From the NCBI GenBank assembly GCA_013812995.1, contig JACCSL010000516.1:1-10188 (forward strand): 10,188 nt of DNA. Reading direction: 5' to 3'. The position numbers were made by a program, and so were the translations under genes. Below are positions 1 through 10,188 of the stretch, in pieces; position 1 is the first letter of the stretch, and the number at the start of each line of letters is the position of its first letter. This DNA is from Ardenticatenales bacterium (GTDB lineage: Bacteria > Chloroflexota > Anaerolineae > Ardenticatenales > Ardenticatenaceae). The notes beneath the pieces were generated by a model, which had not been told where the DNA came from, searched no databases, and was given only the letters and a program-made list of their open reading frames with translations.

Positions 1-3000
1 ACGCAGGCCCGCCTCACGGCGATTCTGGACGCCACCCCGGACTTTGTGGGCATTGCGGCTGTGGGTGGGAAACCGCTCTACATGAACCGCGCCGGAGCGG
101 AGATGGTGGGCTACACAGTGGAAGAAGTCCTCACTCATGCATCTCTTGGGGACTTCCACCCCGTCTGGGCAGAAAATTTGATCGGCACCCAAGGTATTCC
201 CATCGCCATCCGCGAGGGCACGTGGAGCGGCGAGAGTGCCCTGCTCACCAGGGATGGTCGAGAGATTCCCGTCTCCCAGGTCATCATCTCCCACAAAACG
301 AGCGATGGCGAGGTATCCTATATATCAACGATTGCGCGTGACATCACCGAGCAGAAGAAAACAGCGGAGGAGTTACAGCAATTTGCTGAACAACTCCGCA
401 CGGCGGCGGAATCCGCCGCGCAGATCAATGCCATCCTGGACCCGGACGAGCTCCTCCAGCACACCACAACGCTCCTGCAAGAGCGCTTCGATCTCTACCA
501 TGTGCATATCTACCTCCTGGACGAGATGCAGCGAGTCCTTGTCATGCGCGCAGGCTCGGGAGAGGTCGGGCGGCAGCTACGGCAGCAGGGGCACACCATC
601 CCCATCGATCAGGAGCATAGCCTTGTGGCGCGTGCGGCCCGAAGCCAGGATGTGATTCTCGTGAATGATGTCACGGCGGAGGCCGACTTCCTGCCCAATC
701 CGCTTCTGCCCAACACCCGCTCCGAGGTCGCGGTGCCGCTCGTGGCGGCGGGTCGTGTGCTGGGTGTCCTGGATGTGCAGGATGACCAGGCGAACCGTTT
801 CACTCCCTCGGACCTGGATGTGTTCCGCACGCTCGCGAGCCAGGTGGCGACCGCGCTGGAAAACGCACGCCTCTTCGAGCAGGTCGAACAGAACCTCATC
901 GAGGCCAAGATCCGCTTCGAGGTGAGTCAGGCGCTGGCGGGAACCCAATCGGAGGAGGATGCGCTCGACACCATCCTGGAGCGTGCTGGCTTCTACCCGA
1001 AAGCGCAGGTATCGCTCTTTCTCTTCGACCCCACGTCAGAGGAGCAAGCCTTTGTCGTCCATGACACACGCTCCTTCCGCAGCAATCTCACCCCGCTCCC
1101 GAAGGGGGTCCGCTTCCCCGTCAGTGAGTTCCCTGTGATCGGGCAGTTGGTTTCGCCCGATGATATTCTCGTCTCTGATAATGTCCACAATGATGGGCGT
1201 TTTGACGAGAAGATGCGCAATGTGCTCCGGCAGAGCGGGGCCATCAGCGGCGCGATTATCCCGCTGACCATAGGCGATGAATGGATCGGCATCATCTCGG
1301 CGACCTCGCGCGAGGAGGGCTACTTTGACGAGCAGAAGCTCTTCCTCTATCGCCTGCTGACCACGCAGGGCGCGGTGGCGGTACGCGCGGCGCGGCTGCG
1401 GGAGGCCCGTGAGCAGGCGCGGGCGGAAGCGGAGCAGGAACGCACCCTGCTCGACGGCATTCTGACGAACCTGCCTGTGGGTGTTTTTGTGACCAACCGC
1501 GCGGGTGTGCCCATCCGGGTGAACGAGAAAGCATCTGAGCTGCTGGGACGCGGGATTCGTGGGGAGGCAGGCAACTACACGGAGATTTATGATGTGATCC
1601 ACCGCGAGAGCGGCGAGATCTACCCCGAGCAGAAGCTCCCGCTCGTGCAAACTTTGATGGATGGGCAGCAACACAGCGCCGATGATCTGGCCGTGCGCAA
1701 GCCGGATGGGACGATGGTGAACCTCCTGGTCAACTCCGGCCCCGTGCTTGACCCTGCCGGTGAGATGCTGGGGGCCATCGTCGCCTTCAGTGACATCACC
1801 GAGCGGGTGCGCGCCGAGGAGTCACTGACACGCTTTACGAACCAACTGCGTACCGCTGCCGAGCTGGCAAGTCAGGTCAACGCGATTCTCGATCCCAATG
1901 AGCTGCTCCAGCAGACCGTGGACCTCCTGAAAGAGCGCTTTGGGCTCTACCATGTCCATGTTTACCTATTGGATGAGGTCAGCGGTCAACTCCTCATCCG
2001 GGCAGGGTCCGGCGAGGTCGGGCGGCAGCTGCGCGAGCGGGGACACTCCCTATCCATCGACCGGGAGCAAAGTCTGGTGGCGCGCGCGGCACGCACCCGC
2101 GAGGTGGTCCTCGTGGATGATGTCGCGGCAGAAGCTGGCTTCTTGCCCAACCCGCTCCTGCCTGATACACGCACGGAGGCGGCCGTGCCACTTCTGGCGG
2201 GGGGCAAGGTGCTGGGGGTCTTCGACGTGCAGGACGATGAACCAAACCGCTTCAGTTCTTCAGACCTGGATGTGTTCCGTACCCTGGCCGGCCAGGTTGC
2301 CACCGCGCTGGAAAATGCACGCCTCTTCGAGGAGGTGCAAAAGAGCCTTGAGGAGACCGCGATTCGCTTCCAGGTCAGTCAGGCGCTGGCCGGAACGCAG
2401 ACGGAAGACGATGTGCTGGACGCGATGATCCAGCAGGCTGGCTTCTACCCCGAGGCCCAGGTGATGATCTCGCCCATCGATCCCGAGGCAGAGGAACAAA
2501 CCTTCGTCGTCAAGCGGGTGGATTCCTTCAGCAGCGGGCTGATGCCCATCCCAATGGATGTGCGGATTACGATTCGCGAAATGCCCCTGCTTCAGCATCT
2601 CTCGGCAGATCAGATCTTTGTTGCGTCGGACATCGAGACGGATGAGCGCTACGATGAGGCTAGTCAAGCCATGTCCAAGGCAGTGGGCAACCGAAGTGCT
2701 ATGGTTGTACCAATGGTGGTAGGCGGAGAGTGGCTCGGAAACCTGGTCGCGACTTCGCCTGAAGTGGGGTACTTCGACGACTATCGCAAGCAGTTCCTCT
2801 ATCGCTCGCTCGCGGAGCAGGGAGCGGTGGCGCTCCGCACGTCGCGTCTCTTTGATGAGACGCAGCGCACAGCGGCGCGTCTGCGCGAGTTGGACCGCCT
2901 GAAGAGCGAGTTCCTGGCAAACATGAGTCATGAGCTGCGCACGCCGCTCAACTCCATCATCGGATATGCCGAAATCCTGCTGATGGGGATCAATGGCGAA

Positions 3001-3600
3001 CTGAGCGACGATGTGCAGGAAGATGTACAGGCCATCCGGAGCAGCGGCCAGCACCTCCTGCGCCTCATCAATGATATCCTGGACCTCGCTAAAATCGAGG
3101 CCGGGCGGATGACATTGGAGTGGGAAAATGTTTCCCTCTCCTCCGTTCTGGACGAGGTGCGCAGCAACAATATCAGCCTCATCCACAACAAGCCGATCGA
3201 GTTGGTCGTCGAGATCGAGGAAGATCTGCCCCAGATTCGGGGGGACAGCCTGCGACTGAATCAAATCCTCACCAATCTTCTCTCCAATGCCATCAAATTC
3301 ACCAATAACGGCCGGGTCTGGCTGCGCGCCTACCAGGAAAATGGCAACATCGCGCTGGAGGTAGCGGATACCGGTATTGGCATGAGTGAGCGGGACCTGG
3401 TAACAATCTTCGAGGAGTTCCGGCAGGTGGATGGCTCCAGCACCCGGCGGGTTGAGGGAACAGGTCTGGGGCTTGCCATTACACGACACCTTGTTCAGAT
3501 GCATGGTGGGAGCATCGCGGTGGAAAGCGAGTTGGGCAAGGGGAGCACCTTCACCGTAACGTTGCCAGCTCCGCAGGAAACCGAAAATCAAGGTGGGTGA
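1..3600 (+). CDS. Multi-domain PAS/GAF sensor histidine kinase, 5' end outside the window
   Basis: The frame is open from base 1 and already reads PAS sequence (TQARLTAILDATPDFVGI), so the true start lies upstream and the GTG at 46 is internal. Counting the codon at base 1 as residue 1, the order is PAS (about 4-118), GAF (140-292), divergent GAF (300-465), PAS (481-605), GAF (624-776), divergent GAF (784-945), HisKA (964-1030) and HATPase_c (1080-1192). The H-box is NMSHELRTPLN with the phospho-accepting His at residue 977 (codon 2929-2931). The N-box NLLSNAIKF, G1 box DTGIGM and G2 box GTGLGLAI are intact, so it should be catalytically active. The PAS-GAF-GAF block occurs twice, 484 codons apart. 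No membrane segment or receiver domain is visible, which suggests a cytoplasmic sensor, though the missing N-terminus could change that. It is three bases upstream of the next kinase gene and probably co-translated with it. The ligands of the PAS and GAF domains cannot be inferred. Confidence 0.95.
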   Translation, partial: TQARLTAILDATPDFVGIAAVGGKPLYMNRAGAEMVGYTVEEVLTHASLGDFHPVWAENLIGTQGIPIAIREGTWSGESALLTRDGREIPVSQVIISHKTSDGEVSYISTIARDITEQKKTAEELQQFAEQLRTAAESAAQINAILDPDELLQHTTTLLQERFDLYHVHIYLLDEMQRVLVMRAGSGEVGRQLRQQGHTIPIDQEHSLVARAARSQDVILVNDVTAEADFLPNPLLPNTRSEVAVPLVAAGRVLGVLDVQDDQANRFTPSDLDVFRTLASQVATALENARLFEQVEQNLIEAKIRFEVSQALAGTQSEEDALDTILERAGFYPKAQVSLFLFDPTSEEQAFVVHDTRSFRSNLTPLPKGVRFPVSEFPVIGQLVSPDDILVSDNVHNDGRFDEKMRNVLRQSGAISGAIIPLTIGDEWIGIISATSREEGYFDEQKLFLYRLLTTQGAVAVRAARLREAREQARAEAEQERTLLDGILTNLPVGVFVTNRAGVPIRVNEKASELLGRGIRGEAGNYTEIYDVIHRESGEIYPEQKLPLVQTLMDGQQHSADDLAVRKPDGTMVNLLVNSGPVLDPAGEMLGAIVAFSDITERVRAEESLTRFTNQLRTAAELASQVNAILDPNELLQQTVDLLKERFGLYHVHVYLLDEVSGQLLIRAGSGEVGRQLRERGHSLSIDREQSLVARAARTREVVLVDDVAAEAGFLPNPLLPDTRTEAAVPLLAGGKVLGVFDVQDDEPNRFSSSDLDVFRTLAGQVATALENARLFEEVQKSLEETAIRFQVSQALAGTQTEDDVLDAMIQQAGFYPEAQVMISPIDPEAEEQTFVVKRVDSFSSGLMPIPMDVRITIREMPLLQHLSADQIFVASDIETDERYDEASQAMSKAVGNRSAMVVPMVVGGEWLGNLVATSPEVGYFDDYRKQFLYRSLAEQGAVALRTSRLFDETQRTAARLRELDRLKSEFLANMSHELRTPLNSIIGYAEILLMGINGELSDDVQEDVQAIRSSGQHLLRLINDILDLAKIEAGRMTLEWENVSLSSVLDEVRSNNISLIHNKPIELVVEIEEDLPQIRGDSLRLNQILTNLLSNAIKFTNNGRVWLRAYQENGNIALEVADTGIGMSERDLVTIFEEFRQVDGSSTRRVEGTGLGLAITRHLVQMHGGSIAVESELGKGSTFTVTLPAPQETENQGG
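382..2880 (+). repeat. Internal tandem duplication of a PAS-GAF-GAF module within the kinase gene
   Basis: The stretch starting at 382 (FAEQLRTAAESAAQINAILD) recurs from 1834 (FTNQLRTAAELASQVNAILD), an offset of 1452 bases or 484 codons. The match runs through the first GAF (both contain RAGSGEVGRQLR, LVARAAR, FLPNPLLP, SSDLDVFRTLA or PSDLDVFRTLA, and QVATALENARLFE) and into the second, divergent GAF (RFEVSQALAGTQ against RFQVSQALAGTQ). Similarity fades in the distal part of the second GAF and in the PAS domains. This is a protein-level repeat made by duplication within the gene, not a mobile element. A third copy of the GAF lies in the neighbouring kinase gene. Confidence 0.85.
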
Positions 3601-3603
3601 TTG

Positions 3604-5247
3604 ATGCGCCGTTCCGCGCTTCCCCCATTCCGTCACTGGTTCTCGCGCCAGGAAAGCCTGATTATCATCGGGTCGGCCGTGATCTACATCGTGCTGTTCC
3701 TGGGCGGCTATCGCCAGTTCGGGGCGAGCCTGGCGGCGCTGGCGCTCCTGCCTGGTAGCGTGATGGCCTGGTATCTAGGCCGCCATCTCAAGGTAGGCGT
3801 CGTCGCGGTGGTCGTCATGGCCGAGATGGCCTTGATCAACCTGTTTCTATTTACGGCGACGGGGTATAGGGACCCGATAGGGGGTGTTATTGGCTCTCAG
3901 GGCATCTCCGGGACCCTCGCGGTGGGCATCTTTGGTGCAGTGATTGCCTGGCTGGGCCAGGTGCTTGAGCAGCGAACCCGCTTGGCCACGCAGCTGCGCA
4001 CCGCCACCGAGTTGAGCCAGCAGCTCAATCATATCCATGAGATCAACCCCCTGCTGGAGCAGGTTGCCACGCTCCTCCAGAGCCGCTTCTCGCTCTACTA
4101 CGTTCAGATCTTTCTACTAGGAGCGCAGCCGCAGGATCTGGTGATGCGGGCAGGCTCGGGCGAGGCGGGTCGCAAGCTCCGGGAGAGCCGCTACACGATC
4201 TCCGCCGGGCAGGGGCCGAGCATCGTTATGAAAGCCGCAGACTCCCGCAAAAGCATTCTGTCCAATGATACGCGAACAGATACCTCCTTTCTTCCCCATG
4301 CCATGCTGCCCAAGACGCGCTCGGAGCTTGCTCTGCCCCTGATTTCCCATGACAAGCTCCTTGGGGTTCTTGATCTCCAGGATGATCAAGTGAACGGCTT
4401 CCGGCCCGAAGACATCGACATCTTCAATGTTCTGGCCGGGCAGATCGCGACAGCCCTGGAAAATGCGCAGCTCATTGAGGCGCTAGAGCATACCGCTGCC
4501 CAACTCCGCGAGGCCAATAACCAGAAGAGTCGCTTCCTCGCCAATATGAGCCACGAGCTGCGTACGCCGCTCAACTCTATCATCGGCTATACCGAGATTT
4601 TGCTGATGGGAATCAGCGGCGAGCTGCCCGAGGCGGTGATGGAGGACATCGGCGCGATTCAGGCGGGCGGCCAGCACCTTCTGCGGCTCATCAATGACAT
4701 CCTGGACCTCGCCAAGATTGAGGCCGGGCGGATGACGCTGGAAAAGGAAACTGTCGAGGTTGCCGCGCTTGTTGAGGAGGTCAAAACGAGTTCGATGAGT
4801 CTACTTCGGAACAAGAACGTGTCGATGAGCACCGAGGTAGAGGAGGGACTTCCCACCCTCTGGGTAGATCACGTCCGATTGAGTCAGGTGCTGACCAACC
4901 TGCTCTCGAACGCTATCAAGTTTACCAATGAGGGCAAGGTTCGCGTTCGAGCCTACCAGGCCAACGGCTCCGTCGCCATTGAGGTCGCGGACTCCGGTAT
5001 CGGGATGACCCCGGAAGGAATGGCCTCTCTCTTCCAGGAATTCCAGCAGGTAGATGACTCCAACACCCGGCGGGCCACGGGTACGGGTCTGGGGCTCGCG
5101 ATCACGCGCCACCTCGTGCAGATGCACGGGGGGGAGATCGTTGTGGCAAGCGAGCTGGGCAAAGGCAGCACGTTCACGGTAAAATTGCCAGTTGAAAGGA
5201 CACAGACCGCGCCGGAGGCAAAAGCAGAAGCCCCCGTTGGCTCCTGA
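3604..5247 (+). CDS. Membrane-anchored GAF sensor histidine kinase
   Basis: I chose ATG 3604 because AGGTGGG (3591-3597) lies six bases upstream; TTG 3601 is the alternative and changes one residue. The 547-residue product has four hydrophobic segments (about 19-35, 38-57, 63-84 and 100-119), with almost no extracytoplasmic sequence between them. These are followed by a GAF domain (140-292), HisKA (307-372) with H-box NMSHELRTPLN and His317, and HATPase_c (408-530) with N-box NLLSNAIKF (Asn436), DSGIGM and GTGLGLAI. It ends in an Ala/Pro/Glu-rich tail. All kinase motifs are present. GAF and kinase core are close to those of the upstream gene (shared stretches include SHELRTPLNSIIGY, GQHLLRLINDILDLAKIEAG and LAITRHLVQMHGG), so the two probably arose by duplication and may phosphorylate the same receivers. 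The membrane part could sense the bilayer or only anchor the protein. It resembles no named sensor module that I recognise. Confidence 0.95.
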   Translation: MRRSALPPFRHWFSRQESLIIIGSAVIYIVLFLGGYRQFGASLAALALLPGSVMAWYLGRHLKVGVVAVVVMAEMALINLFLFTATGYRDPIGGVIGSQGISGTLAVGIFGAVIAWLGQVLEQRTRLATQLRTATELSQQLNHIHEINPLLEQVATLLQSRFSLYYVQIFLLGAQPQDLVMRAGSGEAGRKLRESRYTISAGQGPSIVMKAADSRKSILSNDTRTDTSFLPHAMLPKTRSELALPLISHDKLLGVLDLQDDQVNGFRPEDIDIFNVLAGQIATALENAQLIEALEHTAAQLREANNQKSRFLANMSHELRTPLNSIIGYTEILLMGISGELPEAVMEDIGAIQAGGQHLLRLINDILDLAKIEAGRMTLEKETVEVAALVEEVKTSSMSLLRNKNVSMSTEVEEGLPTLWVDHVRLSQVLTNLLSNAIKFTNEGKVRVRAYQANGSVAIEVADSGIGMTPEGMASLFQEFQQVDDSNTRRATGTGLGLAITRHLVQMHGGEIVVASELGKGSTFTVKLPVERTQTAPEAKAEAPVGS

Positions 5248-5273: not shown

Positions 5274-7406
5274 ATGGATACATTATTCAATTCAGTTCGC
5301 TGTCTGGAGTGCGGTCATGAGATGGAGGCGGATCTCTATGGCAGCCGCTGTAGTGAGTGTGGCAGTGGCTGGCTTGATGCACGCTATCGCTATGAGGCAC
5401 TGCCCGCGAATTGGCCTGCCCTACTAGCGAGCCGCCCCACAAACCTGTGGCGCTACCGTGAGCTTCTCCCCTTCCCGGACGGGATTCGACCCGTCTCGCT
5501 GGGGGAGGGCTGGACCCCGCTGACGCCCGCCGAGGGGCTGGAACGAGAGTTTGAGCATCAAGGGCTCTGGATCAAGGATGAGCGGCAACAGCCCACGAGT
5601 TCCTTCAAAGATCGCCAAGCCGCGCTGACGGTGAGCGCCCTCAAGGCGCGTGGAATCGATGAGATGGTGCTTGCCTCGACGGGCAACGCGGCCGCCGCCT
5701 ATGCGGCCTTCTGCGCGCGGGCCGGGATCAAGCTGTGGGTCTTCCTCACCAGCAGCGTCCCCGCTGAGAAGATGCGCGAGCTCGCCCTCTACGGGGCCGA
5801 GGTGGTCAAGATCACGGGCACCTACGACCAGGCAAAGGGCATCGCCGCCAACTTCGCGGCCCGGCGCGGCATTCACTTTGACCTGGGGGCCAAGGCACTC
5901 CCGGGCAAAGAGAGTATGAAGACGATAGCCTTCGAGATCGTGGAGCAGATGGGCTGGCGCGCCCCGGACTGGTACATCCAGGCAGTCTCGGGCGGCATTG
6001 GGCCGCTGGGGGTGCTCAAGGGTTTCACAGAGCTGTACCAGGTAGGGCTGATCGACCGTATCCCGAAGCTGGGCATCGTGCAGGTGCAGGGGTGCGCCCC
6101 GATGGTTCAGGCGTGGCAGCAGGGGTTGTCCCAGGCGGAGCCGGTTCAGCCCGACACCCTCATCACGGTGCTCGCTACGGGTGATCCCGGCTTTTCCTAC
6201 ACCATCCTCAAGGCGGCCAACGACGAGCATGGGGGTGCGATGGTTGCCGTCAGCGATGGGGAGGCATTCCGGGCCATGCGACGCCTCGCCCGAACCGAGG
6301 GTCTCTCCGTAGAACCAGCGGCCAGTGTGGCCTTCGCAGGGCTGGAGAAGCTTTTCGAGGGACGATTTATCACCTCCGGGGAGCAGGTTGTTATTAACTG
6401 TTCGGGTCACACCTTCAGCGCGGAGAAGCACACGCTGGAGGATCGCTATGTGTTGAACCTGGAGATGGAAACACAGGCAGCGTCCACCTCGGAGGTCGCT
6501 ACGGTATCACGCCCCTATCAGGAAGGGCTGACCGAGGCGCTCAAGCAGTTGGACGAGCAGGTTACCAGTATCGTTGTCATCGACGATAACCCGCATGACA
6601 GCCGCCTGATCCGTCGCCTGCTCCAGAGCTACAAAAATTACCGCGTTTTTGAGGCGCACAATGGCCCCGACGGCATCGATCTGGTTCGCCAGCGCCAACC
6701 GGACCTCGTGGTGCTGGACCTGACGCTTCCGGACATGGATGGCTTCTCCATCCTCTCGGCGCTGAAGGCCGATGAGCGTACCCGTGAGATTCCGGTGATT
6801 ATCATCTCGGCCAAGACGCTGACGGATGAGGAGCGTACCCATCTGCGCCGCCTCACCGAATCGATCTGGCAGAAGGGCAACTTCAGCATTCAGGAACTCA
6901 TTCACCATGTGGTGGATGTCATGGGGGGGGAAGTCGAGCAGCCAGACGCACCGCTGACCACCACCCCGCGCGAGATTGTGGACAAGATGACCGAGGCGTT
7001 CGCCTGGGCCTCCAAGGAAACCGCCTCGAAGGAGCAGCCGCGCATCCTCGTCGTCGATGACAATCGCCTGGATGCACGGCTGCTGCGCCGTCTGTTCGAG
7101 GCCCGGCAGCGCTTCAAGGTGGCCGAGGCACACTCCACGGCAGAGGCCCTGGCGGCCCTGGCGGAAACCACCCCCGATCTGATTATCCTGGATCTGGTGC
7201 TGCCGGATGGCAGTGGGGAAGAGCTGCTCAAATCGCTGCGCAACCGCGCCGAAACGCGCGACGTACCCGTAATCGTCGTCTCGGCCAAACTGATGGACTC
7301 GGCCCTGCGCGCGGAGCTCGCCGAACAAACCGATTCGGTCTGGGACAAGGGAACGATGGATCGCAGCAGTCTTCTTGCTCATGTCGAAACAATGCTCTCG
7401 GAGTAA
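5274..7406 (+). CDS. Threonine-synthase-like PLP enzyme fused to two response-regulator receiver domains
   Basis: ATG 5274 follows AGGTAGG (5259-5265) by eight bases and begins a 710-residue protein. Residues 1-392 resemble a complete fold-type II PLP enzyme of the threonine synthase family. There is an N-terminal zinc-ribbon pattern (Cys10, Cys13, Cys26, Cys29), the motif LGEGWTPL, the PLP lysine Lys112 in SSFKDR, the ASTGNAAAAYAAF loop with Asn138, a glycine loop SGGIGPLG (239-246), EGLSVEPAA (342-350) and a C-terminal SGH (Ser377). After a short linker come receiver 1 (431-551: Asp437/Asp438, phospho-acceptor Asp482, Ser512, Lys534) and receiver 2 (588-710: Asp595/Asp596, Asp640, Ser670, Lys692). 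Both receivers keep all phosphorylation residues. The frame is continuous and the fusion point has no stop. Threonine synthase converts O-phosphohomoserine to threonine; here the usual NPYRIEGQKT-type substrate loop reads ALPGKESMKT, so another phosphorylated or amino-acid substrate, or a pure sensing role, is possible. Position between two kinases and a stand-alone receiver suggests control by phosphorylation. The domain calls are firm; the reaction is not. Confidence 0.9.
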   Translation: MDTLFNSVRCLECGHEMEADLYGSRCSECGSGWLDARYRYEALPANWPALLASRPTNLWRYRELLPFPDGIRPVSLGEGWTPLTPAEGLEREFEHQGLWIKDERQQPTSSFKDRQAALTVSALKARGIDEMVLASTGNAAAAYAAFCARAGIKLWVFLTSSVPAEKMRELALYGAEVVKITGTYDQAKGIAANFAARRGIHFDLGAKALPGKESMKTIAFEIVEQMGWRAPDWYIQAVSGGIGPLGVLKGFTELYQVGLIDRIPKLGIVQVQGCAPMVQAWQQGLSQAEPVQPDTLITVLATGDPGFSYTILKAANDEHGGAMVAVSDGEAFRAMRRLARTEGLSVEPAASVAFAGLEKLFEGRFITSGEQVVINCSGHTFSAEKHTLEDRYVLNLEMETQAASTSEVATVSRPYQEGLTEALKQLDEQVTSIVVIDDNPHDSRLIRRLLQSYKNYRVFEAHNGPDGIDLVRQRQPDLVVLDLTLPDMDGFSILSALKADERTREIPVIIISAKTLTDEERTHLRRLTESIWQKGNFSIQELIHHVVDVMGGEVEQPDAPLTTTPREIVDKMTEAFAWASKETASKEQPRILVVDDNRLDARLLRRLFEARQRFKVAEAHSTAEALAALAETTPDLIILDLVLPDGSGEELLKSLRNRAETRDVPVIVVSAKLMDSALRAELAEQTDSVWDKGTMDRSSLLAHVETMLSE
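6923..6930 (+). other. Run of eight G in the linker between the two receiver domains
   Basis: Eight consecutive G encode the Gly-Gly at residues 551-552, exactly at the end of receiver 1. A one-base slip here would leave the PLP enzyme and receiver 1 intact and put receiver 2 out of frame. Similar C8 runs occur at 7551-7558 and 8369-8376, so in this GC-rich DNA the run may mean nothing. Confidence 0.5.
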
Positions 7407-7410
7407 CTTG

Positions 7411-7779
7411 ATGGATGCCAAAACCGTTCTCTACATTGAAGACAATTTCCACAACCGCCGCCTGGTTCGCAAGATTCTGGAATCGCGCGGCTACACCGTC
7501 ATTGAGGCAGAAGATGGGTTGACGGGGCTGGACATGGTGCGGGAACTTCGCCCCCCCCTGGTGCTGATGGACATCGGTCTGCCAGGGATGGATGGCCTGG
7601 AGGTGACCGGGCGCATCAAGGGAGATGCCGAACTGCGTCACATCCCGGTGATTGCGCTGACCGCCTCCGCCATGCGCGGCGACCGGGAGCGCTTCCTGGA
7701 GGCGGGCTGCGATGACTACCTGTCCAAACCTATCCAGCCGATGGAACTGCTCAATCTCATTGCCACTTACCTGCCATAA
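7411..7779 (+). CDS. Stand-alone CheY/DivK-like response regulator receiver
   Basis: ATG 7411 is chosen because GGAG (7400-7403) lies seven bases upstream and the protein then begins directly with the first receiver strand (KTVLYIEDN); the open frame further upstream overlaps the preceding gene. The 122-residue product is one receiver domain with no output domain. It has the acidic pair Glu10/Asp11, phospho-acceptor Asp54 in LVLMDIGLPGMDG, Thr84 in ALTASAM and Lys106 in YLSKP. Glu in place of the first Asp is common in DivK-like regulators. The sequence is closer to the canonical receiver type (Thr, K-P) than the two receivers fused to the PLP enzyme (Ser, K-G), so it may serve a different step, such as a shuttle or phosphate sink for the two kinases. 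The gap to the upstream stop codon is four bases and an intrinsic terminator follows, making it the last gene of the operon. Confidence 0.95.
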   Translation: MDAKTVLYIEDNFHNRRLVRKILESRGYTVIEAEDGLTGLDMVRELRPPLVLMDIGLPGMDGLEVTGRIKGDAELRHIPVIALTASAMRGDRERFLEAGCDDYLSKPIQPMELLNLIATYLP

Positions 7780-7802: not shown

Positions 7803-7831
7803 AACCTTCCTCCTTTTGGGGGAAGGTTTTT
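7803..7831 (+). terminator. Intrinsic (rho-independent) terminator of the signalling operon
   Basis: AACCTTCC (7803-7810) pairs perfectly with GGAAGGTT (7821-7828). The stem extends inward through TCC/GGG (one T-G pair) around a TTTT loop (7814-7817), giving about 11 pairs. A T-run follows immediately (7827-7831). It lies 24 bases after the receiver stop codon. Confidence 0.88.
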
Positions 7832-7881
7832 GTGTGGCACTCCTCGCGCTGCCACCATTCCCTTCTACCCAGGAATCACTC

Positions 7882-8832
7882 GTGATTATTCGACCCTATG
7901 TAGAGGCAGATGATCCTGCCCTCATGGTGCTTGAGCGTCAATGCCCGCGTGGCGACCCTGATCCTTTCGTTCACTACCGGCGACGGTTCGTGGATCGCGC
8001 TGCGCTCTTCACTGAGTACTATCTGCTACTCATTGAATCGCAGGGAACCATTGTGGCTGTCGCTGCGGCGAGCATCAAAAACAGCACCATCAAGGGGCAG
8101 TCGATGCGCATCGGCTATATCTTCGATGTGCGTGTCTCCCCCGCCATGCGTCGGCAGGGGCTGGCAGCCACCCTCGTGGAGGGGCTGGAGGCCGACTTGC
8201 AGAGTATGGGGTGCGAGGGCGTCTATGCCCATGTCGTTGCCACCAACGTCGCCTCGCTCCGCCTCTTCACCAATCTGGGCTACACGCGCCAGCGCCAGCT
8301 ACGCTTTCTGACCTATCAGCCCATGCCTCTGTTTACGTCCGACCCGGTACCAGTGCTCCGCCACCGCGCCCCCCCCTATGATGAGATTGCCTATCACCAT
8401 CGAGAGCACGATCTCTTTGTAGAAGATGTGGCTCCCTCTCTGGTTCCCTTTGACTTCGAGTGCTGGGAAAGTCAGGAAGGCAGCGCCTCGATCAGCCTCT
8501 TCGATCAGAGCCAGGTGTTCCAGCAGGTGCCCATTGACGCACCGTGGCCCACGCCCGAGGAGATTGCGCGGCGTGGTCGCCACTGGCGGCTCTTTCATCC
8601 CTTCGGCAACGCAGCAGACCTCCAGCCCCTCTTCGATACGATTCGGGACCAGGCGGTGAGCGAGAATATCAACAAGCTGACCATGCTGGTCGATGTCGAG
8701 GACCCGCTCCCCTCCTTCATCTATGCCGAGACGACGGACCAGCGCGAGTATGTCGCGCTGACCCGCCCCTTCGATCCCAAATGGGATGGCACCTTTGGGC
8801 CAAAGTTCTACTGCGACACCCGCGAACTTTAG
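7882..8832 (+). CDS. Two-domain GNAT-family acetyltransferase, HLS1-like layout
   Basis: The frame is open from 7816, but that point lies inside the terminator hairpin. I chose GTG 7882, with AGGA (7871-7874) seven bases upstream, which starts at the first GNAT strand (MIIRPYVEADDPALMVLER). The product has 316 residues. Residues 1-155 form an N-acetyltransferase domain using acetyl-CoA: motif A is FDVRVSPAMRRQGLAATLV (81-99, with R-Q-G-L-A as pyrophosphate loop), followed by ATN (120-122) and SLRLFTNLGY (125-134). Residues 156-316 are a second region I cannot assign to a separate family by eye. The opening LERQCPRG, the strand GYIFDVRVSP, FTNLGY and the ending CDTREL resemble, from memory, the plant HOOKLESS1 acetyltransferases over their full length. 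The substrate is unknown. No clear promoter is visible between the terminator and the start. The 3' end overlaps the convergent sulfurtransferase gene by four bases. Confidence 0.85.
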   Translation: MIIRPYVEADDPALMVLERQCPRGDPDPFVHYRRRFVDRAALFTEYYLLLIESQGTIVAVAAASIKNSTIKGQSMRIGYIFDVRVSPAMRRQGLAATLVEGLEADLQSMGCEGVYAHVVATNVASLRLFTNLGYTRQRQLRFLTYQPMPLFTSDPVPVLRHRAPPYDEIAYHHREHDLFVEDVAPSLVPFDFECWESQEGSASISLFDQSQVFQQVPIDAPWPTPEEIARRGRHWRLFHPFGNAADLQPLFDTIRDQAVSENINKLTMLVDVEDPLPSFIYAETTDQREYVALTRPFDPKWDGTFGPKFYCDTREL

Positions 8833-9686
8833 GGGGGCTCCTCCCCCACCGCGACCGGACGCTCCGGGCTCGCGCTCCAGCCGCTCCACGAGGGAACAAA
8901 GAGGCGCGCCCCGGACAGGCCGCTAACCTCCAGCGCCAGCAGGTTGTGGCAGGCCGTTACCCCCGAGCCGCAGTACACGACGACCTCCTCTGCTGCGTGC
9001 GTGCCGAGTGCGCTCTGCCATGTCTCAGCCAGCTCCTCCGCCGGGCGCAGCGTGCCTGCGGGCGCAAGGTTCTGTGCGAAGGGACGGTTGCGCGCCCCTG
9101 GAATGTGCCCGGCCACGCGATCAATGGGCTCGATTTCTCCCCGGTAGCGCGCCGCCTCTCGGGAATCGATCAGCAAGGTGGCAGGGGACCGCTCCAGAAG
9201 CTCGTCCATCGAGGCCAGCATCTCGGGGTGCGGCTCACCCTGGAAGTGAGCGGGAGGTCGTGTCTCTGCGCCGCTGGCAGTGGAGTAGCCCTGCGCCCGC
9301 CAGGTGGGCAAGCCGCCGTCCAGCACAGCGATGGCCTCGTGGCCCAGGTAGCGAAGCATCCACCAGAGGCGCGCGGCAATGGAACCTCCCTGGTCGTCGT
9401 AGCAGACCACCTGCACGCCCTCGGCGATTCCCCACGCGCCAAGAGTAGCGCGGAAGGTGTCCAGCGCCGGGAGGGGGTGGCGGCCCTCGTCGGGGGTGGC
9501 CAGGGCAGAGAGGTCCTTGTTCAGGTCCGCATAGATGGCTCCGGGAATATGCGCTTCCAGATAGCGCGCGCGGCCAGCCGCCGGGTCATCCAGCTTGAAA
9601 CGACAATCCACGACAGCCCACGCAGGATCTCCCAAATGTTCCCGCAGGGCCTCGGCGCTAATCAGGGTGCTATAATACTCGGCCAT
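8829..9686 (-). CDS. sseA: Sulfurtransferase, 3-mercaptopyruvate type (tandem rhodanese domains)
   Basis: ATG at 9686-9684 (minus strand) is preceded by AAGGAG (plus-strand CTCCTT at 9691-9696). An in-frame ATG farther upstream would add 29 residues unlike the family. The 285-residue product has the usual length of two-domain sulfurtransferases. The N-terminal domain (about 5-135) contains VVDCRF, HIPGAIYADLN and an inactive loop with YDDQGGSIAARLWWML. The C-terminal domain (about 155-280) contains LLIDSREAARYRGEIEPID, GHIPGARN and the catalytic loop VVYCGSGVTAC with Cys239. The CGSGVTA loop is the form typical of 3-mercaptopyruvate sulfurtransferase, as opposed to CRKGVTA of thiosulfate rhodanese; this is why I prefer sseA, although substrate use is not certain from the loop alone. 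No signal peptide is seen, so it is cytoplasmic. It is convergent with the acetyltransferase gene and divergent from the cupredoxin gene, with a CRP-type site between them. Confidence 0.92.
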   Translation of the reverse strand: MAEYYSTLISAEALREHLGDPAWAVVDCRFKLDDPAAGRARYLEAHIPGAIYADLNKDLSALATPDEGRHPLPALDTFRATLGAWGIAEGVQVVCYDDQGGSIAARLWWMLRYLGHEAIAVLDGGLPTWRAQGYSTASGAETRPPAHFQGEPHPEMLASMDELLERSPATLLIDSREAARYRGEIEPIDRVAGHIPGARNRPFAQNLAPAGTLRPAEELAETWQSALGTHAAEEVVVYCGSGVTACHNLLALEVSGLSGARLFVPSWSGWSASPERPVAVGEEPP

Positions 9687-9721
9687 GACTCTCCTTGTCT
9701 GATTGTGTGAATAGGAACGCC

Positions 9722-9750
9722 ATTGTAGAGGGAGCAGGATAACCCGCCAA
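9722..9750 (-). promoter_or_regulatory. Candidate promoter of the sulfurtransferase gene
   Basis: On the minus strand TTGGCG (9750-9745) and TACAAT (9727-9722) are separated by 17 bases. They match the sigma-70 consensus at 4 of 6 and 5 of 6 positions. Transcription would start near 9715, leaving a short leader of about 30 bases that contains the AAGGAG ribosome binding site. This is a by-eye match only. Confidence 0.45.
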
Positions 9751-9777
9751 TCGCTCCTGGCTCTGTCATGCAATTGC

Positions 9778-9793: not shown

Positions 9794-9873
9794 AGGGTTA
9801 AGCTTAGCCTGGAATAAAGGAGAAAACCAGAGCAATACGTTTTGTTTAGAGACAGCACAGAGTACAATTACGA

Positions 9874-9891
9874 TTCGTTGTCGCAAACGAA
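9874..9891. repeat. Short inverted repeat upstream of the cupredoxin gene
   Basis: TTCGTT (9874-9879) and AACGAA (9886-9891) form a perfect six-base inverted repeat around a six-base centre, 37 bases before the ATG. It could be an operator or a weak hairpin in the leader. A possible -10 (TACAAT, 9863-9868) sits just upstream, but I see no good -35 for it. Confidence 0.35.
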
Positions 9892-9928
9892 CACTCAATA
9901 TAGTTCAAGAGAAAGAGAAGGAAACTGT

Positions 9929-10188
9929 ATGCGTAAGTTGCAACTTGTTGCCCTGCTGGCTGTTATGGTCCTGCTGCTAGCTGCCTGTGGCGGTGGAAAT
10001 ACCACGTCCAGCGGGAGCGGAAACACCGAGGGTACCACGGGTGGGGCCGAGAGCGCCGTGCCTGCACCGAAGTCCGTCACGGTCGAGGGAACCAATGACC
10101 TTAAATACCTACCCGCCGAGTTGACCGCTGAGGCTGGCCAGTCCCTGGATATTACGCTTCAGAACTCCAGCGCCCTTGAGCACAACAT
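9929..10188 (+). CDS. Secreted lipoprotein, probable cupredoxin (3' end outside the window)
   Basis: ATG 9929 follows AAGGA (9918-9922) by six bases. The first 86 codons are visible. Residues 1-20 are a lipoprotein signal peptide: MRKLQ, a hydrophobic core and the lipobox LAAC with Cys20 as the lipidation site. A flexible Gly/Ser/Thr/Asn linker (21-45) follows, as expected for a protein tethered outside the membrane. From about residue 50 the sequence looks like the first strands of a small copper protein (VTVEGTNDLKYLPAELTAEAGQSLDITLQNSS) and ends at ALEHN, where His85 is placed like the first copper ligand of auracyanin and plastocyanin-type proteins. The remaining ligands (Cys, His, Met/Gln) would lie beyond the window, so copper binding is inferred. 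The likely role is electron transfer at the outer face of the membrane. Transcription probably depends on the intergenic region with the CRP-type palindrome. Confidence 0.78.
   Translation, partial: MRKLQLVALLAVMVLLLAACGGGNTTSSGSGNTEGTTGGAESAVPAPKSVTVEGTNDLKYLPAELTAEAGQSLDITLQNSSALEHN

What the first reader, a model, noticed from the sequence alone, without database searches (positions are those of the whole stretch)
5274..7406. A threonine-synthase-like PLP enzyme covalently joined to two intact receiver domains
The sequence shows one uninterrupted frame with a complete-looking PLP enzyme (zinc-ribbon cysteines, Lys112, Asn138, glycine loop, Ser377) followed by two receivers that each keep the acidic pair, phospho-Asp, Ser and Lys. 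Receivers normally control DNA-binding, cyclic-di-GMP, methylesterase or phosphatase outputs; I know of no characterised case where they are fused to an amino-acid biosynthetic PLP enzyme. Inference: phosphorylation by the neighbouring kinases switches the enzyme, or amino-acid binding in the PLP domain feeds into the phosphorelay.
Basis: partly seen in the sequence, partly recalled or inferred. Interest (0 to 1): 0.88.

Follow-up and report, generated by a model that had tools for sequence, protein, structure and literature searches.

The report
PLP enzyme fused to phosphorelay receivers
A protein that joins a vitamin-B6-dependent amino-acid-type enzyme to two receiver domains of bacterial signalling is real and intact, belongs to a large family whose named carriers found here are Chloroflexota bacteria and which usually lies beside sensor kinases, and is probably an enzyme switched by phosphorylation, though what it acts on is unknown.

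Summary
ORF 5274-7406 (710 aa) is one frame: four-Cys ribbon, PALP domain with PLP lysine K112, two Response_reg domains. The fusion recurs widely: 140 of 396 class genomes match at E<=1e-120, and searches with two single-receiver members return 6,814 and 5,970 protein clusters at E<=1e-100, one named Herpetosiphon giganteus. In a 120-row tree all 55 fused PALP domains share one branch. Among 419 distinct members K112 is kept in 419; REC1 keeps D438 419, D482 418, S/T512 419, K534 419. A histidine kinase lies within 1.5 kb upstream, same strand, in 70 of 82 distinct loci, against 1 of 46 other PALP loci.

Best reading: an enzyme-output response regulator, where the kinase phosphorylates the receiver and this changes the PLP enzyme. 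It is probably not threonine synthase: phosphohomoserine-pocket residues are replaced, and 35 of 36 carrier genomes tested have a separate receiver-less thrC match above cut-off. Receivers attached to metabolic enzymes are a recognised class (PMC5847659, section 14), so this is a new, unusually widespread variant.

The parts
1..3600 (+). Histidine kinase 1 (start lies off the contig): PAS and GAF domains, HisKA, HATPase_c
   Evidence: H-box SHELRTPL and a G box found
3604..5247 (+). Histidine kinase 2: hydrophobic N-terminus (by eye), GAF, HisKA, HATPase_c; ATG 3 bases after the kinase 1 stop
5274..7406 (+). PALP-REC-REC fusion protein, 710 aa
5301..5360 (+). Four ribbon cysteines C10, C13, C26, C29
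   Evidence: 44 of 44 single-REC rows; C26 and C29 in 142 of 142 and C10, C13 in 124 of 142 double-REC rows, the other 18 having a gap there
5493..6407 (+). PALP domain, residues 74-378; PLP lysine K112 at 5607-5609
   Evidence: K112 in 419 of 419 distinct members
6558..6929 (+). REC1, residues 429-552; phospho-Asp D482 at 6717-6719
7035..7403 (+). REC2, residues 588-710; phospho-Asp D640 at 7191-7193
   Evidence: D596 124, D640 137, K692 140 of 140 double-REC members
7411..7779 (+). Stand-alone receiver (REC3), starts 4 bases after the fusion's stop
   Evidence: a REC-only gene is next downstream in 22 of the 22 two-receiver loci and in 36 of all 67 loci annotated (my count; L089 and L090 are near-duplicate records)
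7807..7823 (+). Terminator-like hairpin with T tail, suggesting the unit ends after REC3
   Evidence: 7 such sites in 6.8 kb, 4.0 expected in shuffles, so weak; sequence seen

Best explanation
An enzyme-output response regulator. A GAF/PAS histidine kinase encoded just upstream phosphorylates REC1 at D482 (and in this branch REC2 at D640). The receiver change alters the activity or assembly of the attached fold-type-II PLP enzyme, which acts on a small amino-acid-type substrate other than O-phosphohomoserine. Shown: the fusion, its single branch in the tree, its catalytic-residue conservation, its kinase linkage, and loss of the threonine-synthase signature. Inferred: phosphotransfer, control of activity, and the nature of the substrate.
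For: PLP lysine in 419 of 419 distinct members; REC1 D438 419, D482 418, S/T512 419, K534 419 of 419 (mostly the top-listed hits of three searches, so close relatives are over-represented). Kinase domain within 1.5 kb upstream on the same strand in 70 of 82 distinct loci, against 1 of 46 other PALP loci. All 55 fused PALP domains on one branch, support 100. REC directly behind PALP in 85 of 87 distinct loci, 0 of 67 other PALP loci. Mean identity to the window in double-REC relatives: PALP 77.3%, REC1 70.5%, REC2 61.9%, against linkers 41.2% and 20.1%, so all three modules are constrained.
Against: No structure could be predicted, and a coupling analysis gave no excess of PALP-REC pairs (13 of the top 50, 20.0 expected). 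REC is C-terminal. The residue three before the receiver lysine is almost always I/L/V and not aromatic, unlike the usual Tyr/Phe switch (recalled). 12 of 82 loci show no kinase within 1.5 kb upstream. REC2 sites are looser than REC1. I found no biochemistry on it.
Confidence: 0.56

Rival explanations
1. Metabolite sensor: the PALP domain binds an amino acid or PLP adduct, which changes how the receiver takes or gives up phosphate, so the protein feeds the phosphorelay and does not chiefly make a product.
For: REC is C-terminal; a single-domain receiver gene follows in 36 of 67 loci (my count) and could carry the output; in some loci a REC gene sits between kinase and fusion, a REC-cyclase in the two tested.
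Against: The PLP catalytic residues checked are fixed, more than simple ligand binding would need; the kinases already carry GAF/PAS sensor domains.
Confidence: 0.2
2. A genuine threonine synthase placed under kinase control.
For: Closest solved chains are threonine synthases (2zsj E 1.9e-45). 11 of the 26 PALP-REC matches listed exceed the TIGR00260 cut-off of 167.1 bits (best 188.6). Many of the named rows read 'threonine synthase'.
Against: The window scores 156.7 against 167.1 and misses the 7 threonine/cysteate synthase cut-offs shown. T88 becomes A/V, the N154-S155 and NAGN motifs are lost, and TGHGLKDP becomes (S/T)GHTF (pocket roles recalled). 35 of 36 carrier genomes tested have a REC-less match above cut-off (my count).
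Confidence: 0.12
3. The receivers serve only for assembly or placement (dimerisation, docking on the kinase) and the enzyme runs at a constant rate.
For: No excess of PALP-REC coupling; non-aromatic position three before the lysine.
Against: D482 418, D438 419 and K534 419 of 419: a pure scaffold would be expected to lose phosphorylation residues.
Confidence: 0.1
4. Assembly or frameshift artefact joining two genes.
For: L061 shows the pieces in separate frames.
Against: 140 of 396 class genomes, some in one contig; REC behind PALP in 85 of 87 distinct loci.
Confidence: 0.01

Closest known systems
Response regulators with metabolic-enzyme outputs (PMC5847659, section 14: in archaea REC with KaiC-type NTPase, BcsA-like glycosyltransferase, thioredoxin reductase, pyruvate phosphate dikinase; bacterial cases cited to reviews not held here)
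   Same: REC fused to an enzyme that is not a usual signalling output; lineage-restricted as far as seen
   Different: Output is a PALP enzyme; REC is C-terminal, one or two copies; found in many families of a phylum, where the archaeal fusions are described as narrow, typically a family or genus
Threonine synthase (TIGR00260 / PRK08197)
   Same: Fold-type-II PLP enzyme; SFKDR lysine, STGN loop; PRK08197 is the best NCBIfam model (277.3 bits)
   Different: Below cut-off for the window (some relatives pass TIGR00260); phosphate-pocket and C-terminal motifs replaced; REC domains added
Cysteate synthase (TIGR03844)
   Same: Related PALP enzyme; matches residues 8-387
   Different: 132.9 bits against a cut-off of 324.9
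Standard two-component response regulators with cyclase or phosphodiesterase output
   Same: Kinase next door, intact receivers; L194 and L195 carry a REC-cyclase gene too
   Different: Output enzyme here is a PLP enzyme

Membership tests
Response regulator (two-component) | Receiver with acidic pair, phospho-Asp, Ser/Thr and Lys | tested here: met
   REC1 418-419 of 419; REC2 124-140 of 140 depending on site
Response regulator (two-component) | Cognate kinase linked | tested here: met
   70 of 82 distinct loci; window kinases at 1-3600 and 3604-5247
Response regulator (two-component) | Phosphorylation-dependent change of output | not testable with these tools
   needs biochemistry
PALP fold-type-II PLP enzyme | Schiff-base lysine, Asn loop, glycine-rich phosphate loop, C-terminal Ser/Thr | tested here: met
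   K112 419, N138 419, G243 419, G241 418, S/T377 419 of 419 (residue roles recalled)
Threonine synthase | Score above TIGR00260 or PRK08197 cut-off | tested here: not met
   window 154.1/156.7 against 167.1 and 277.3 against 303; 11 of 26 listed relatives do exceed TIGR00260
Threonine synthase | O-phosphohomoserine phosphate pocket (T88, N154, S155, R160 in T. thermophilus numbering, recalled) | tested here: not met
   T88 is A or V in the 55 rows, N154 and S155 positions are A and K in the window, R160 is K in the window
Threonine synthase | Makes threonine from O-phosphohomoserine | not testable with these tools
   assay needed
Cysteate synthase | Score above TIGR03844 cut-off | tested here: not met
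   132.9 against 324.9

The most novel reading that the evidence does not exclude
The PLP enzyme is a signalling output: on kinase activation it makes or destroys a small amino-acid-derived signal, which in one branch is moved by the EamA transporter encoded beside it. That would make it a two-component pathway whose message is an amino-acid metabolite.
Probability: 0.13. Interest if true: 0.87.

Novelty: new variant of a known kind. Interest (0 to 1): 0.64.

Why it matters
Thousands of protein clusters, many of the named ones labelled 'threonine synthase', look like phospho-controlled regulators with a different substrate pocket. If confirmed, a PLP amino-acid enzyme joins the outputs that histidine kinases can control directly, in Chloroflexota, a phylum common in sediments and reactors and thinly studied (recalled). 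A named isolate species among the hits (Herpetosiphon giganteus; that it is cultured is recalled) makes the question testable.

Tried and rejected
A mean-field coupling analysis (403 rows, effective number about 60) gave no excess of PALP-REC pairs among the top 50, 100, 200 or 400. Single inter-domain pairs do rank 5th, 6th and 8th (REC1 residues 518-521 with PALP 255, 282, 283), but that PALP stretch varies in length between subfamilies, so I treat it as no evidence either way. Apparent N-terminal extensions (open frames near 1,000 aa or more) were looked at in a sample and showed no further fused domain. The first gene-context count (50 of 65) undercounted kinases because of the simple ORF caller; it was replaced by a domain-based count (duplicates still in), then with duplicates removed. 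No plasmid match. No Rfam match in the window.

Sampling of other phyla by the genome search was not possible, so restriction to Chloroflexota rests on named hits only. One search gave 20 loci: 9 hold the fusion (L084-L087, L089-L093) and one (L088) ends inside PALP at its contig end; all ten have Chloroflexota names or lineage (Aquidulcis by the tree label). Of the other ten, L094-L102 have no REC behind PALP; L103 is a short match and was not tested.

EamA link: among loci with at least 1.2 kb held on both sides, EamA lies within 1.5 kb of 20 of 79 fused loci against 0 of 40 other PALP loci (one search's 21 of 87 against 0 of 48 included control loci with short flanks). 12 of the 21 loci come from one family (f29), so the events are fewer than the counts. 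GNAT (1 of 87) and ParA (0 of 87) did not stand out within 1.5 kb, although both recur further out.

Literature: nine of ten paper searches used. No title or abstract start shown named a PALP or threonine-synthase response regulator; one search listed 20 of 129 papers and one search listed 20 of 23. I saw section 14 and passages of PMC5847659, passages of PMC4558063, and the term passages of PMC7090099 and PMC3162934, which are unrelated; the rest as listings only. Galperin 2006 and 2010, the likeliest places for an earlier mention, are not held, so an earlier listing cannot be excluded.

Full report
What is there. The window is one whole contig of an unnamed draft genome (83.6% complete). Relatives of the fusion that carry an organism name are Chloroflexota. 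Reading along the + strand: a GAF/PAS histidine kinase whose start is off the contig (1-3600), a second kinase with a hydrophobic N-terminus and a GAF domain (3604-5247), the fusion (5274-7406), and a stand-alone receiver (7411-7779), with gaps of 3, 26 and 4 bases. A hairpin with a T tail follows (7807-7823; such sites are only mildly above chance there), then a GNAT gene, so the unit probably ends after the receiver.

The fusion is genuine. PALP covers residues 74-378 and two Response_reg domains follow. Near-full-length relatives turn up in 18 of 60 genomes (own genome counted; partial hits in G005 and G054), in 23 of 201 genomes of the phylum at E<=1e-90 (the sets overlap), and in 140 of 396 of the class at E<=1e-120; most have one receiver. 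Protein searches give 7,571 clusters at E<=1e-60 with the window protein, a looser limit that can include receiver-less enzymes, and 6,814 and 5,970 at E<=1e-100 with two single-receiver members. Each search scored only 8,000 candidates and listed 120; the listed rows carry both Pfam domains.

One branch. In a 120-row tree all 55 fused PALP domains lie on one branch with support 100 and length 0.88, apart from canonical ThrC and other PALP clades of the same genomes (FastTree; branches that long can mislead). The double-receiver proteins fall together inside it; one member of that group, L085, reads as a one-receiver protein followed by separate REC genes. Some genomes carry both a two-receiver and a one-receiver member (e.g. 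G408, G499, G478).

Both halves are kept working. Over 419 distinct members of at least 500 aa (140 of two-receiver length, 279 of one-receiver length) K112 and N138 are invariant. REC1 keeps D438 419, D482 418, S/T512 419 and K534 419 times. REC2 is looser: D596 124, D640 137, S/T670 138, K692 140 of 140. These are mostly the top hits of three searches, so deep diversity is under-sampled. Mean identity to the window in double-receiver relatives is 77.3% for PALP, 70.5% for REC1 and 61.9% for REC2, against 41.2% and 20.1% for the linkers.

Kinase linkage. A kinase catalytic domain ends within 1.5 kb upstream on the same strand in 70 of 82 distinct loci with at least 1.2 kb held; for other PALP genes it is 1 of 46. 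Of the 12 exceptions one (L048) has a kinase within 4 kb and three had only 1.5 kb of upstream sequence. A REC-only gene is next downstream in 22 of 22 two-receiver loci (my count). In several two-receiver loci a REC gene lies between kinase and fusion; the two tested by Pfam are REC-adenylate/guanylate cyclases. Other recurrent neighbours are an EamA transporter (20 of 79 against 0 of 40) and, in one branch, a REC-less PALP gene; the one tested is of the PRK08197 family (577.5 bits against a cut-off of 303).

Probably not threonine synthase. The window falls below the cut-off of each of the seven threonine/cysteate synthase models among the 25 families shown. Using T. thermophilus numbering from the alignment (computed), T88 is Ala or Val, N154 and S155 are not kept, NAGN becomes SGGxGP and the C-terminal TGHGLKDP becomes (S/T)GHTF. 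That T88, N154, S155 and R160 hold the substrate phosphate is recalled; I found no held paper for it. Against this, 11 of 26 PALP-REC matches listed do pass TIGR00260, up to 188.6 bits, so the family is close to threonine synthase. 35 of the 36 carrier genomes given to one search also have a REC-less match above that cut-off (my count from its table); the exception, G042, has one at 165.1.

How it most likely works. The kinases carry the sensing domains; the receiver is the phosphate acceptor; the PLP enzyme is the output. Phosphorylation and its effect are inferred. The sensor and scaffold readings remain open because no structure or assay was available and the coupling analysis showed no excess of inter-domain pairs.

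Novelty. Receivers attached to metabolic enzymes are a recognised class (PMC5847659, section 14, read), the archaeal ones with narrow distributions. A PALP output, this breadth, and the kinase linkage are what is new as far as my searches reach. Two reviews that might list it are not held.

Noticed in passing
window 7816-8832 (+): GNAT acetyltransferase gene behind a terminator-like hairpin; GNAT genes also lie downstream of the fusion in L187 and L195 and by similarity in L192 and L196-L198.
   Followed up: partly
window 8832-9773 (-): Rhodanese-domain protein, two matched stretches, on the opposite strand.
   Followed up: no
window 9842-10186 (+): Start of a lipoprotein-like gene with a signal peptide and cysteine (by eye), cut by the contig end.
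   Followed up: no
L194 10123-11223 (-), L195 9844-10962 (-): REC fused to a class III adenylate/guanylate cyclase domain, encoded between the kinase and the PALP-REC-REC gene.
   Followed up: partly
L064-L067, L091, L093: A REC-less PALP gene lies just downstream of PALP-REC; the one tested (L065) is PRK08197-type. The two could form mixed oligomers.
   Followed up: partly
REC1 residues 531-535, REC2 689-693: Position three before the receiver lysine is almost always aliphatic, an aromatic sits two before it in most members, and REC1 has KG in 415 of 419 in place of the usual KP (the usual form is recalled).
   Followed up: partly
L061: In one draft genome (G005) the PALP and REC pieces lie in different frames, so the gene is broken or misassembled there.
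   Followed up: no
L085: Inside the two-receiver branch one locus reads as a one-receiver protein with separate REC genes behind it, perhaps a split of the second receiver.
   Followed up: no
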